Shown: piece after piece, positions 611 through 64,000 of the stretch | Layout: each line of letters begins with the position of its first letter | How positions within the stretch are numbered: the first letter of the stretch is position 1 | Assembly (NCBI GenBank): GCA_016758905.1 | Contig: JAEPQZ010000019.1 | Location: forward strand, 397,462 to 461,461 | Direction of reading: 5' to 3' | Length of the DNA stretch: 64,000 nucleotides | Source: Umbelopsis isabellina | Lineage: Eukaryota > Mucoromycota > Umbelopsidomycetes > Umbelopsidales > Umbelopsidaceae | Notes under the pieces: generated by a model | Told to the model about the DNA's origin: nothing | Seen by the model: the letters and a program-made list of their open reading frames with translations, nothing else | The model's database searches: none | Position numbers and translations under genes: made by a program

Positions 611-3264
611 CTATAAGCTATCGTCCCCTCTCCGTCGTCGTCTTTCGTCTAATAGAGCTGGGCTACCTCGACCATTTTCACTGTCAGTTGATGGAACACT
701 TAACACGGTCGATGGACTATTCACAGTAGGCGGTACAGTTAATCGAGATTGATTATCATCCTCTTCTGGAACTTCCGTCACTGAGTAGCCCATTCTTGAT
801 GGCTTTCTATTAGGAACTGCCGAGGCAGGTATGTAACCTGAACCATCTTCGGGAGCCAGCGCCGAATTATTAGGACTGATGCCATGTTGATAATACGTGT
901 TCAAGTTCGGGGAACTGCCTGTTCTCGCAGTCAAATTCGTAAAACTGCCAGTTCGATTAGATAGTCCCAATGCAGAAGATGAACTTTTGATGCCAGAATA
1001 CTCTCCACCTGGAGTTGACGCAGCTGAAGACGGCCCATGCAGTCCCAAAGCAACACTGTCGCCACTGTATCGCTTTTTGGCCCATGGCCGCGTAGGTACC
1101 GAAGGCTGAGACCGTGTTGATGTAGCTGAGGTTGGTCGACGTAGGCCCCCTAATATAGGACTAGACCCAATATTTATGGAAACACCATCGGGGTCATCAG
1201 AGTCCAAGTTCGAAACAGACACTCTAAATTCACCATCATCGGCATCCAAATCGTAGGACGCCATTGGCATTTGCGTAAAAGTTCGATTATGCCTCCATAA
1301 CCGTGAGAACCAATAACGTGTTGTGCTTGAAAGGTCGCGCAGTAACCTTGACGGGTAATAGTGTGAATGTGCTGGGCGACCACCATGGAAAAATCCATTG
1401 TGGCTGCTATCTGAACCACCGAGGATCCCCGCAGTGGAATCATAGCCTTTTCCAGACCGTCTGCGAGCTCGACTGCGAGATATACACCACACCAAAACGC
1501 AACAAATGATCATTATTGACATTACAAAGAATGCCAGTGAGTGAGTTCCTCCCGGTAGCGATTTGTGAAGAGGTTTTCCTGATACTCCGATAACCTCTTC
1601 GAGAGGTGGTTCGCCATGACCTTGATTACCGTGTGGCCCTTCGTCATCTGTGCTATGACCAGGTAAGTCACCGTCAGCCAGTGGTATTTGGTCAGACACA
1701 TACTGCAATATGGCTCCCAAAGTCCATGAGACTTGGATATCGTTGATGGTATCAATGCTTTGAAATGGTGGGCTCCAGTGCTTGGCATTGACACTCTCAA
1801 TAGATTGCTCTAAGACTTCCTTCTCTTTAGCTGCAGTACCTTGGCCACCAGCGTCAACGATTCGAGGTATTTCAATACCATCATGTAACACGTTTACGAT
1901 CCAGGCTGCTTTGAAGCACTGCATTTCAAAACGTTGAATGTCTAAATCACTTGCATGCTTATGATCAGAGAGAATTTTTTCCCATGCCGTACTACAATAT
2001 TCTGTAGCTTTCTTCTCATACTCAACGAAATCATATACTCCTCCTAAGCCCAGAATATCGTGTGATGAATACCAGTATTCAGAGATGCCCACGAATTTGT
2101 TTACGAGCCAATCTATGTGTGGAGTATGCACACCATTGAACAAGCAGGGCTCAGTAGGACACTCGACGTCTTTGTTCAGCAATGGCAATGTGGTTTCTAG
2201 GCACTTGTCAAAAGATCCCGTTCCGTGCAAAGTTAGTGCAATACTGGTTGATGACGAATCTGTCAAATTAAGGTTGTTTGGAAGACATGGGTCATCCAAG
2301 TGCAAAGTATGGTGCTCATCTAATAAGTCGGATTTAGGACCAGCCTCAGCGTATGCTTTTTTTACTCGCTCTTCCAAATATCTCCTGCGCGCCTCATTGC
2401 TGCCATAACCTAAGAAGGTGGTGACAAAAACATCATATTCCACTCTCCTTCCGTCTAAGGTATGCAGTGTAATTTTCTCCAAATCATCCATATGCTCTTC
2501 CTTTTGATGATGCTCAGGTTCAAATGCAATTTGCGTGCTAGCGCCTCCCATATCGAGGAACCCAAAGGTGTGATGTTGTTCGCGGATGCCGGCAGCATTT
2601 TTGGGTTGATCACTTAGCGCTGCTTCAATACTGGCATCAAATCCTCCCATAAGGTAATTGACAGCCGTCCAGCCGTACAACCCTTCCATTTCTCCAGATA
2701 TAATCTTGATCTGTTGGGCACAGTTATCTAATTTGAAATTTGAATTCTTTTGGATGTAATTACAAGTAGCTCCAAGAATCTCTTGCTGATCTGCTGCGGG
2801 AAGTAATCGCATTCCTGCTGTAGCCATCAGAAATATGGGTGTCTGTTTATGTTCTTGAGCAGGTACGACCTCCTCCGCAAAGTCCAACAACATTTTCAAA
2901 TGCTCGCCTATATCTTGGGTTTTTCCTGCATAAGATGATATGCCTAATGCATGATCCGATCAATAAATAAGTCTTTTCATAGATTAACTCCATGCGGAAA
3001 ATAAAAACCATGATGATCCCCCATACCTGGATGTTCTTTGAGTGTCCATTTTAGACCCAATTGATCTCCTCGTTCAACAGTAGGTATACGCCCCTTTAGT
3101 GCGTCCGGTGGCTGTGTTTCCACTAGGTGATTGTAGTCTTTCCATGAGTAGATGTGAGCTCTTGAGCCAGAGGATCCGGCATCGATAACGATTCCGTAGC
3201 GACGGTTCTGTAACCAGTCGCTATTGGAACCAGTGTCTTGGTCAGACGCTTGCAACGCAGACAT
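611..3264 (-). CDS. YND1: Golgi apyrase / nucleoside diphosphatase (GDA1-CD39 family)
   Basis: Hydrolyses nucleoside di- and triphosphates in the Golgi lumen, removing the inhibitory NDP left by glycosyltransferases. Exon 1 is 3027-3264, an 83-nt intron is 2944-3026, and exon 2 is 611-2943. The sum is 856 aa, in frame. The apyrase conserved regions appear in order: VIDAGSSGSR near residue 25, PGISSYA across the splice junction, ATAGMRLLP, then LDMGGASTQIAFEP. A strong transmembrane segment (AFFVMSIMIICCVLVWCI) lies about two thirds along and is followed by a long Ser-rich cytosolic tail. That architecture fits yeast Ynd1 rather than Gda1, whose membrane anchor is N-terminal. No signal peptide is evident at the N terminus. 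The tail of more than 250 residues is longer than I would expect for the catalytic role and may be regulatory. Confidence 0.92.
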
Positions 3265-61166: not shown

Positions 61167-62507
61167 AAATTTGACTACATCATATTGGCGAATACATTCG
61201 ATTGTCCCTAAATAAACGCTATAGATATGAACACGGAAACGGCTATTCTGTTAGCTATGCGACCTTTTTACGCCTTTCCGATTTGCAAAAATGAGTTCTC
61301 TCTGACTCCTCTATTACAAATTCGGGTGACATTCTGTTAACAATAAATGTATTCGAGGAAAATTGTAAGTATTCCAAATATTGGAACAGTTCTTATCAAA
61401 CGCAATGCTCACTTCCCTACGAAATGTCCGTTTTCCGCTTTTTGTGCTCTGAAGAACATTCTCTCGGCAAAAATCATCAACAAGACAACCTTTGGTAAAA
61501 CTTTTTCAGAGTGCCGCAAATCTTCTAATGGTCAACACCAGTGCCACATGACTACGTAACATTGTCCAAAATTGGTATACATTCACTTCGGTCTAAACGG
61601 TCTCAACGGTTTGATGCTTGGCTTCAGTATTGCTCTAGCTAGATGAGTTTCCCCTTGAGGATGTCACATTTATGGGCAATTGATCTTTAGTGAAAATCTA
61701 TGTTAATCACTAACGAAGACAATGACTAGAATCTCAAAACATCACAGGGTGAATTCCTAGGCTATACAAATACAAAGCTTTACGGTTGAGCAGAAAATGT
61801 TGGCTAATGATCAACGATCCCATGAACTGCACTAAAACGGTCGATTTTTAAATTATGAGACTGTGATCGCCGACATCTTACCGTTTGCATTCCTTTGCAT
61901 CTAAACCGAGAGTCATCATATGGCAGTCAATTTTCAATTTTGCTTAGAAAAACATCCTCATGTTGGCAGGACCGACTATTGTTTGCTCTCATATACTTTG
62001 ATATACGTATCACCAGAATACTTATCCACTTGCAAAACCTGGAATAAATGAGGCAAATACATGAACACTAAATCATATCCATCATTATATCCTACAAAGT
62101 AGCTCAATGTTATAAAAAAAAAACCATTGATATATTACGAATTTGACCAATGCCTTCTACCTATTTCAACTTGCAGCATATAAAAATAATGATCACTGTA
62201 CGATGATGATTTGCTGCATATTGACATTAGCCGAATAGAACCGTAAATCGCAAAGACGAAACAGAAACGACAATTATCAAAACCAAATAGATTGTACTTA
62301 CCAAAACAGTAATATAGTCGGACAATTGGAAAATCAATATAAATAGTACACCATCATTACGAAAAAAAATAAAAAAAAAATAGGTTACCAGAGCACTCGC
62401 CAGAACAAAACTTCCAAGCAACTCAAACGGTAAGAAACTTTTATAGTAACATGTATCGGTTGTCTTAATCTACTGAATTAATGTACTTTAACATAGAATC
62501 TTAAGCA
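61167..62507. other. AT-rich subtelomeric DNA, no supported gene
   Basis: About 1.3 kb with no protein-like frame of useful length (a 70-codon plus-strand frame at 61347-61559 has no recognised content). No transposon ends were recognised. Confidence 0.45.
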
Positions 62508-62765
62508 ATGGCAAAAATTGTCTACTTTATTACCTTACTGATGCTGGTTGCCATGGTGACTGCCATTTGTATTGAGCCGGTGTTTATCAATGACAAAAGG
62601 TGTAGTACAGCCGACGATTGCATAAAATCTTGTCCTGAAGGTACAACACATGCTACATGTGCTAAATTCAGTGGCAACCTCAATTCGTACTGCTGTTGTA
62701 TGACCAAAGATAGTAACAGATGCTGTGCTCACTATGGCAGCTATTACTCATGTTTCCCTAAATAA
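62508..62765 (+). CDS. Small secreted cysteine-rich protein, 85 aa
   Basis: I do not recognise this protein. The first about 20 residues (MAKIVYFITLLMLVAMVTAI) form a strong signal peptide. The mature part is about 65 residues with 11 cysteines, including a CCC and a CC run, in the order C...C....C...C...C...CCC...CC...C. This density suggests a disulfide-stabilised secreted peptide (defensin-like or effector-like fold), but no family signature was matched. It is the last coding-like gene before the telomere, about 1.1 kb from the perfect repeat array. Confidence 0.7.
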   Translation: MAKIVYFITLLMLVAMVTAICIEPVFINDKRCSTADDCIKSCPEGTTHATCAKFSGNLNSYCCCMTKDSNRCCAHYGSYYSCFPK

Positions 62766-63064
62766 TCCTAAACAATAAAAGAACAGCGCGTCAAGTTATA
62801 CCCTTATTAAAGGGTATAGTAAAAGTATAAAGACATTTTGACGTAAAGTTTAAACGTCTTCTTAATACTATTTGTAAGGCATAGGCCGCTATATACAAAA
62901 AAGTGTTCAGATGTCGCGAAATAAAGCAGGAGAATTGTCCATAGCAGTGACACACAAGCAAGTGCTGCAGCGACCTTTTGAATAAAAAAAATATTACAAT
63001 TTTGGGTATACGTATATTTACGGAGAAAACGTGAATACAAGAAATGATCCAGAGACAGGAGTTA
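62766..63064. other. AT-rich spacer before the degenerate telomere block
   Basis: Short AT-rich stretch with no recognised feature. It contains a near-perfect small inverted repeat (ACCCTTATTAAAGGGT) at about 62800-62815, which could be a terminator or a processing site, or chance. Confidence 0.4.
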
Positions 63065-63860
63065 GTGTTTAGAATAAAGGATATAAAATTAGAATTTAAA
63101 ATTTAGGATTTAGAATATAGGATATAGAATTTAAGATATAAGATTAAGACTATAGAACTGAGGCTTCAGGCTTTATAGTTCAGCCACTAGGGTTAATATT
63201 TACAGTATACCATATAACAGATAAGCGTTAGAGCTTATCAGATAGGCTTTAGAATTGAGAATTTATCAGTTAAGGTTTAAGCTTTAGGATTTAGGGAATT
63301 TGACTTTAAAATTCAGGATATAGACTTTACAATATAGCCTTTAAGAGTTAAGGATTCAAGACTTAGGGTTAAAGATTAAGGGAAGTCAGGCTTTAGAATA
63401 CAGATGTTTAGGATTTAGGCTTTACACTATAAGATCTAGAATTTAGGACTTAGAATTGAGGCTATGGGATATAAGATTTAGGGGTGAAAATTCAAGGTTC
63501 ACGGTATAATATTTAAGATATACAATTTAGAACTGAAACATTAAAAATTTAGGATTTGGGCATTTACGAGAGAGCATTTAGACGATAGGATTTAGGAATT
63601 AGGCTTCAGGAATTAAATTAGGCTTTAAGATTTCAAATTAGGATTTAGGGTTCAGGATGGAGAATATAGGCTTTAGGATATAGCATTTAAGACTTAAGCT
63701 TTAGGGTCTAGAATCTAGATTATAGGGTTCAGGAGATATAACCAAAGATTAACACTATCCAATATAAGCTCTAGGATATAGGATTAGGATATATATATAT
63801 ATATATATAGTTTAGGATTCAGGGTTAAAATAGAAGATTAAAAGGTAGGCTATATAATTC
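63065..63860 (+). repeat. Degenerate telomere-like block in 7-nt phase
   Basis: About 800 bp of heavily substituted TTTAGGG-like units. Read from about 63100, successive 7-mers are TTTAGGA, TTTAGAA, TATAGGA, TATAGAA, TTTAAGA and so on. The TTxAG core keeps recurring at 7-nt spacing through most of the block with only a few 1-3 nt slips. An (AT)n run lies at about 63790-63809. The block directly adjoins the perfect array. Confidence 0.9.
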
Positions 63861-64000
63861 AGGGTTTAGGGTTTAGGGTTTAGGGTTTAGGGTTTAGGGT
63901 TTAGGGTTTAGGGTTTAGGGTTTAGGGTTTAGGGTTTAGGGTTTAGGGTTTAGGGTTTAGGGTTTAGGGTTTAGGGTTTAGGGTTTAGGGTTTAGGGTTT
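63861..64000 (+). repeat. Perfect telomere array (TTTAGGG)20
   Basis: Exactly 140 bases of uninterrupted 7-nt units. The G-rich strand runs 5'->3' toward base 64000, which is the orientation of a chromosome right end. The unit is the plant-type heptamer, not the TTAGGG hexamer most common in studied fungi. Confidence 0.98.

What the first reader, a model, noticed from the sequence alone, without database searches (positions are those of the whole stretch)
63065..63860. About 800 bp of telomere repeats decayed by substitution while keeping 7-nt phase
Units keep the heptamer spacing but differ at most positions (TTTAGGA, TATAGAA, TTCAGGC, TTAAGAC). G->A, T->C and T->A changes are frequent while insertions and deletions are rare. 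Telomerase slippage would change lengths; substitution-only decay points to a mutational process (deamination-like or RIP-like) acting on old telomeric DNA. The sharp switch to perfect repeats at 63861 marks the zone renewed by telomerase.
Basis: partly seen in the sequence, partly recalled or inferred. Interest (0 to 1): 0.75.

Follow-up and report, generated by a model that had tools for sequence, protein, structure and literature searches.

The report
Patterned decay of fungal telomere repeats
At this fungal chromosome end, about 800 bases of old telomere repeats have decayed in a pattern that ordinary mutation does not seem to explain: one letter of the seven-letter unit is nearly always lost and another almost never, and other ends of the same genome show the same pattern.

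Summary
Window 63065-63860 is a telomere-derived tract (lag-7 identity 0.52, z 13.7; 292 substitutions, 15 indels) running into perfect TTTAGGG at 63861, at the end of an Umbelopsis isabellina contig. Of 48 contig-end pieces, 20 carry TTTAGGG tracts, 17 with long degenerate zones, all facing the tip.

In 14 ends measured, mismatch rises over about 100-140 bp inward to a near-plateau (0.346-0.421 per end), then creeps up. Positions differ hugely: G7 kept 17%, A4 95% (hazard ratio 37, CI 28-50), while context-matched hazards in 25 homologous non-tract pairs are flat (0.09-0.15). A tract segment shared by two ends now diverges about like its flank (1.7% v 1.1%). Reverse-oriented CCCTAAA units beside tracts mostly keep G7.

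RIP does not fit: 39% of changes are not transitions. A special, strand-asymmetric mutational process near the tip, followed by burial, is favoured but unproved; evidence from flanking DNA is mixed. The sharp switch is real here, but 11 of 14 ends are graded, and the perfect-run length (five of 20 exactly 127 bp) probably reflects the assembler, not telomere length.

The parts
63057..63860 (+). Degenerate TTTAGGG tract, tip-ward orientation, about 37% mismatch to the canonical unit
   Evidence: Lag-7 peak; HMM segmentation and per-position matrix
63861..64000 (+). Perfect (TTTAGGG)20 run ending at the contig end
   Evidence: TRF 100% match, 20 copies; C11 is 461461 bases long and the window ends there
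63790..63809 (+). (TA)10 stretch inside the tract, one of the few larger phase breaks
   Evidence: Read directly in the sequence
62000..63056 (+). Non-telomeric flank on the inner side of a sharp tract junction
   Evidence: No tract call here on either strand; junction read

Best explanation
The block is a run of telomerase-made TTTAGGG repeats that has left the renewed zone. While repeats sit just inside the canonical telomere they receive a strand-asymmetric, context-dependent mutational dose: mainly G>A with the last G hit most (C>T at ApC on the C-strand), plus T2>A and G7>C, with the A almost spared. Net outward growth then buries them, the special mutagenesis largely stops, and slow background mutation goes on. 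A likely source is damage or error-prone fill-in of single-stranded terminal DNA, as described for uncapped yeast telomeres. Shown here: the position pattern, the gradient then near-plateau, tip-ward orientation, a similar dose at 14 ends, and an ordinary rate at depth in one shared tract. Inferred: that the process acts near the tip, that burial is by net growth, and which enzymes act.
For: Of 48 end pieces 20 carry TTTAGGG tracts, 17 with long degenerate zones. Retention by position at 140-700 bp from the perfect run (14 ends).75 .59 .79 .95 .59 .53 .17. Context-matched hazards in 25 homologous pairs with terminal tracts removed.094-.146. The positions climb roughly together and flatten by 105-140 bp (similarly; A4 is too rarely changed to judge). 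Plateau mismatch .346-.421 at 14 ends. A tract segment shared by C12-end and C2-start differs at 18/1049 sites against 8/739 in its flank. Reverse-oriented CCCTAAA units beside tracts or remnants at five ends keep the G7 base in 16/19. At C12-start the adjacent non-telomeric repeat shows the same bias: G before T changed 7/8, G before G or A 0/22, G before C 2/4, A 0/33. Within tracts G5 and G6 are kept .18-.23 before T.39-.42 before C.52-.61 before A or G. Apart from C12-end/C2-start, tracts share no more sequence than unit-shuffled controls.
Against: A second non-telomeric repeat, beside other tracts, does not show the bias: G before T changed 2 of 10, A changed 21 of 218. Flanks within 3.5 kb show no strand asymmetry (tract-end pairs: G/A before T .132 against mirror .127). 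The repeat beside the short tracts of C19-start and C23-end is identical over about 105 bp, differing only in the last few bases next to the tract (alignment), so nearby non-telomeric DNA is not generally hit. The slow phase beyond 1000 bp still gains T>A more than T>C, so it does not look like the neutral reference either. The class mix of substitutions (61% transitions, 18% A/T) is close to the neutral reference (57%, 17%); only its spread over positions and strands is odd. True distance from the tip is unknown. This window's own end is sharp, not graded.
Confidence: 0.46

Rival explanations
1. Variant repeats are made at synthesis. Telomerase, or another end-extending polymerase, misincorporates at preferred template positions during some episodes, and canonical repeats were added later on top.
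For: Position-specific, strand-oriented, largely A-directed errors are what a misreading reverse transcriptase could leave; A4 could be spared because realignment needs it (inference). Human telomerase is reported to make variants at hexamer positions 1 and 3 (PMC3919612, abstract and passages). A telomerase RNA-binding domain match exists on C21.
Against: The terminal runs are error-free over 79-140 bp at 18 of 20 ends (C4-end 45 bp; C2-start cannot be judged), and mismatch rises gradually inward at 11 of 14 ends. In the human report variants at positions 4-6 (the Gs) were scarce, whereas here the Gs are hit most. An 83% misread rate at G7 is extreme.
Confidence: 0.2
2. Ordinary slow decay. 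Inner repeats escape telomerase and collect neutral mutations over time, the scenario the Arabidopsis atlas calls obvious.
For: Substitution to indel ratio and class mix look ordinary. Repeats farther in are somewhat more decayed, and buried remnants more still (kept .498, four ends). Flanks show no special signature in general.
Against: Matched-context hazards vary 1.6-fold; tract hazards vary 37-fold between A4 and G7. Neutral TTT goes to A:C:G 53:96:41, but tract T2 goes .276.054.077. The near-plateau and the common rise of the positions do not fit one uniform clock.
Confidence: 0.16
3. Homology-driven cytosine mutation (RIP-like or a cytosine deaminase): C to T on the C-strand of repeated DNA, self-limiting once repeats diverge.
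For: G>A is about half of all changes, with a strong ApC (C-strand) preference. DNA methylase matches lie at two loci. A self-limiting process would give a plateau.
Against: 39% of changes are not transitions. Reversed CCCTAAA units are mostly spared. Plateau windows are not under-dispersed as a homology threshold would predict (1.08-1.89). APOBEC_N and NAD1 searches found nothing, but rang in no control genome either, so they do not show absence.
Confidence: 0.1
4. Selection keeps a protein-binding motif (the A and its neighbours) in the tract while other positions drift, so A4 is constrained rather than spared.
For: Retention peaks around T3-A4 and G7 is lowest.
Against: The shared C12-end/C2-start tract diverges no more slowly than its flank. 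T is almost absent at position 7 (2%), which drift alone would not give. T2 is not simply relaxed: it goes to A, rarely to C.
Confidence: 0.08

Closest known systems
Degenerate and variant telomeric repeats next to canonical telomeres in Arabidopsis thaliana (TTTAGGG; PMC11406999, passages and sections 6 and 9)
   Same: Head-to-tail, tip-ward, inward of canonical repeats, end-specific; a TATAGGG variant (T2>A) occurs there too
   Different: Arabidopsis arrays show local homogenisation, higher-order repeats and repeat-number changes; here no cross-end sharing beyond shuffled controls apart from one shared segment, a similar plateau at 14 ends and a 37-fold position bias. No per-position matrix for Arabidopsis was seen, so it may share the bias
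Human telomere variant repeats (PMC3919612 and PMC13174434, abstract and passages of each)
   Same: Proximal zone of non-canonical, end-specific units
   Different: The proximal human variants named there are TCAGGG, TGAGGG and TTGGGG (the last an A to G change); here A is almost never changed and the Gs are hit most
Hypermutability of single-stranded DNA at uncapped yeast telomeres (PMC2577886, abstract start and passages)
   Same: Strand-biased substitutions at chromosome ends
   Different: There mostly UV- or MMS-treated cdc13-1 cells over kilobases, and Pol zeta dependent; this is a natural evolutionary pattern confined to telomeric tracts, polymerase unknown
Repeat-induced point mutation (RIP), recalled
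   Same: Fungal, repeat-associated, rich in G:C to A:T changes, self-limiting
   Different: 39% non-transition changes, orientation dependence, no CpA in the unit

Membership tests
Telomere-proximal degenerate telomeric repeats | Lies between canonical telomere and subtelomere, same orientation as the telomere | tested here: met
   HMM scan of 48 end pieces and the window, both strands: all tract calls of 70 bp or more tip-ward, none reversed
Telomere-proximal degenerate telomeric repeats | Units derive from the species' own telomere unit | tested here: met
   Lag-7 peak and match to TTTAGGG; TTTAGGG tracts at 20 of 48 end pieces
Telomere-proximal degenerate telomeric repeats | Homogenisation and higher-order repeats (reported in Arabidopsis, not strictly defining) | tested here: not met
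   Cross-end similarity equals unit-shuffled controls; changes in adjacent units nearly uncorrelated
RIP | Changes almost only C:G to T:A (recalled) | tested here: not met
   39% of changes are not transitions; T>A and G>C common
RIP | Acts on duplicated DNA whatever its orientation (recalled) | tested here: inconclusive
   Reverse-oriented CCCTAAA units beside tracts keep the G7 base in 16/19, but they were picked by consensus, which inflates retention, and they are few
Telomerase infidelity variants | Variants occur among freshly synthesised terminal repeats | tested here: inconclusive
   Terminal runs are perfect as assembled, but the assembler probably hides what lies beyond about one k-mer
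ssDNA hypermutation at chromosome ends | Strand-biased mutations near the end | tested here: inconclusive
   In tracts T sites have hazards .24-.52 against A4 .047 and C12-start's adjacent repeat agrees; another repeat and general flanks do not
ssDNA hypermutation at chromosome ends | Dependence on translesion polymerase zeta | not testable with these tools
   Needs mutants

The most novel reading that the evidence does not exclude
Chromosome ends of this fungus carry a hypermutable zone, just inside the canonical telomere, that delivers a fixed, strand-specific mutational dose (ApC>ApT and AAA>ATA on the C-strand) to repeats leaving the telomere, so that the ends grow outward and write a readable record. 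The C-strand signature resembles somatic hypermutation (cytosine deamination in an AAC context, C>G, plus A-site errors with an A over T bias; a comparison from memory).
Probability: 0.28. Interest if true: 0.85.

Novelty: new variant of a known kind. Interest (0 to 1): 0.58.

Why it matters
Proximal telomeric repeats are usually read as neutral fossils. Here they carry a position-specific, strand-specific signature with a possible internal clock (the A), a similar level at all 14 ends measured, and natural controls (reversed units, a shared tract). That makes it possible to ask, from sequence alone, how repeats mutate as they leave telomerase's reach and whether chromosome ends grow outward.

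Tried and rejected
An early idea, a hot zone at 120-250 bp from the tip with a uniform telomere of about 120 bp, was dropped: the assembly paper names SPAdes 3.10.1 (PMC7928374, passages and the assembly section), five of 20 perfect runs are exactly 127 bp, and C2-start ends in an exact 127-bp duplicate. That 127 is the largest SPAdes k is recalled. Distances in the main profile are therefore from the inner edge of the perfect run; (context part) and 51 still count from the contig end.

An early neutral control from repeat families (4 families, 22 copies counted; 3 further families dropped for having fewer than 4 copies) suggested that T>A is tenfold enriched overall. The larger pairwise control showed that the overall class mix is ordinary; only position and strand are odd. 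That control is unpolarised, and one pair (C5-start/C8-end) makes up about a third of it.

The C12-end/C2-start shared segment was first read as proof that the distal tracts are young. Gene conversion, or capture of another end's tract, explains it as well, so it is used only for the rate at depth. One search counted the stretch 893-2680 bases from the C12 tip; the more diverged inner part of the homology (about 2700-3070, 72-91% identical) was left out. Its 18 tract differences are too few to tell the spectra apart.

A first null for cross-end homology broke unit phase and was replaced. Spill-over of the signature into flanks is mixed: yes at C12-start, no for the second repeat, no in flanks at large.

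Dropped rows: leave out C2-start and C19-end (18 of 20 ends); the profile part and the context part also leave out C24-end (17 of 20), and the homology null leaves out C2-start and C19-end and skips tracts too short for it; searches also leave out C19-start, C22-end and C23-end (14 of 20). Reasons: assembly ends, an unclear inner edge, short tracts.

Literature: 10 searches, two of them with no paper. From titles and abstract starts, none listed a position-specific decay of TTTAGGG tracts in a fungus. The library holds open-licence papers only. The Umbelopsis nana paper (PMC13042297, passages only) notes the AAACCCT telomere repeat; the passages seen do not mention degenerate tracts. PMC6527239 (passages) on oxidative damage in ssDNA did not help.

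Full report
What it is. The window is bases 397462-461461 of contig C11 (461461 bases) of a 22.03-Mb, 24-contig assembly. A GDA1/CD39 protein encoded in the window is 100% identical to INT43_008201 of Umbelopsis isabellina, on a contig of 461461 bases, so the source is this Mucoromycotina fungus. The assembly paper describes Illumina plus PacBio RSII reads and SPAdes 3.10.1 (PMC7928374, passages and assembly section). The telomere unit is TTTAGGG; a paper on U. nana calls AAACCCT a lineage-specific repeat (PMC13042297, passages).

The observation. In 63065-63860 the lag-7 identity is 0.520, z 13.7 against dinucleotide shuffles. Against TTTAGGG the block has 292 changes in 788 sites, 7 insertions and 8 deletions. 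Phase wanders through the block. The perfect run begins at 63861.

Other ends. Both ends of all 24 contigs were fetched, 6 kb each for 44 and 3 kb for 4; some letters read N. Twenty carry TTTAGGG tracts; 17 of these have long degenerate zones and three (C19-start, C22-end, C23-end) only short ones. An HMM scan of both strands of these pieces and the window (680,000 bases over both strands) gave tract calls of 70 bp or more only in tip-ward orientation, within about 2.1 kb of a contig end; in this window only the terminal one. Four ends (C8-start, C18-end, C20-end, C22-end) hold shorter buried pieces with non-telomeric repeats on their tip side; the C20-end call also takes in part of a neighbouring repeat. 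Random AT-rich sequence gave 0 of 40 calls. Chromosome interiors outside this window were not scanned.

Shape of the decay. From the inner edge of the perfect run, in 14 ends, canonical identity goes .831.768.681.671 over successive 35-bp steps, then .638.642.614.583.554 out to 1500 bp. The positions reach their level at about the same distance (A4 changes too rarely to judge). A process with one uniform rate and simple saturation would let slow positions lag. Plateau mismatch is .346-.421 at each of the 14 ends. Changes are nearly independent between sites and units and not under-dispersed. Eleven of the 14 ends start gently (2-6 mismatches in the first 35 bp); C23-start (10), C12-end (14) and this window's C11-end (18) switch abruptly.

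Position and strand. At 140-700 bp the retained fractions are T1 .75, T2 .59, T3 .79, A4 .95, G5 .59, G6 .53, G7 .17; G7 goes to A .66 and C .14; T2 goes to A .28. A wrap-around alignment with uniform scores ranks the positions almost identically, so the HMM emissions do not create the pattern. Twenty-five homologous pairs from the same ends, terminal tracts removed (15,470 columns, 1,570 differences), give flat hazards for the seven matching trinucleotides.094-.146. Relative to these, A4 is about 0.45-fold and G7 about 17-fold. If A4 records the neutral share, most changes at G5, G6, G7 and T2 are in excess. G before T is the worst context wherever it occurs in the tract.

Controls in place. 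(a) C12-end and C2-start share a 2.1-kb segment that includes about 1.05 kb of deep tract: 18/1049 mismatches in tract, 8/739 in flank, so this deep tract is not mutating specially now. (b) A repeat at the inner side of tracts or remnants at five ends contains reverse-oriented CCCTAAA units; they keep the G7 equivalent in 16/19 and A4 in 18/19. The units were chosen by consensus, so the figure is inflated, but it is far from 17%. (c) The tRNA-like repeat beside the tract at C12-start, compared with four other copies, has changed at 7 of 8 Gs before T, 0 of 22 Gs before G or A, 2 of 4 Gs before C and 0 of 33 As; 18 changes in all. That C12-start is the derived copy rests on its broken A and B boxes (recalled motifs). 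(d) Against this, the second repeat shows G before T changed in 2 of 10 and A in 21 of 218, and flanks within 3.5 kb show no asymmetry. (e) The repeat beside the short tracts of C19-start and C23-end is identical over about 105 bp and differs only in the last few bases next to the tract. (f) Deep in the tracts (1000-2000 bp against 250-600) losses are far more even over positions.02-.12, but T>A still exceeds T>C.

What this supports. The special process is tied to tip-ward telomeric tracts, is strand-asymmetric there, gave a similar dose at 14 ends, and no longer acts at depth in the one tract where this could be tested. That points to something that happened while the repeats were terminal or nearly so. 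Post-synthetic mutagenesis of terminal DNA fits the gradient (hypermutation of ssDNA at uncapped yeast telomeres needs Pol zeta; PMC2577886, passages). Misincorporation at synthesis fits the position bias but not the clean terminal runs. Burial by net growth is inferred. If length control counts intact repeats, decayed units would be replaced by new ones at the tip; this is a hypothesis only.

Limits. True telomere length and tip distance are unknown because the assembler probably stops in perfect repeats. One strain, one assembly, no reads. The neutral reference is unpolarised, from subtelomeres, and one pair makes up about a third of it. Figures beyond 700 bp may include misassigned flank.

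Noticed in passing
window 62508-62765 (+): Open frame for an 85-aa secreted-looking cysteine-rich protein about 300 bp inside the tract; no Pfam match and no NCBIfam match over cut-off.
   Followed up: partly
L027 (C19-start), L054 (C22-end), L055 (C23-end), L020 (C12-start), L011 (C3-start): Repeat ending in a tRNA-like A/B-box sequence, lying against the short telomeric tract at three ends and against the degenerate tract at C12-start; a further copy ends contig C3.
   Followed up: partly
C1-end, C2-end, C3-start, C6-start, C6-end, C7-start, C8-start, C13-end, C15-start, C18-end, C20-end, C22-start: Contigs that stop in a tip-ward satellite (CTGGCAGAGCC family), so these are probably further chromosome ends cut off by repeats.
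   Followed up: no
C13-start, C23-start, C4-end, C20-end, C19-end: A repeat at the inner side of tracts carries up to four telomere units in reverse orientation.
   Followed up: partly
C19-end, last 120 bp (L047): Non-telomeric DNA follows a perfect telomere run; no significant match in the fetched ends or the window. Insertion, fusion or misassembly.
   Followed up: partly
C2-start, last about 280 bp (L010): Exact 127-bp duplication through the perfect run, most likely an assembly loop.
   Followed up: yes
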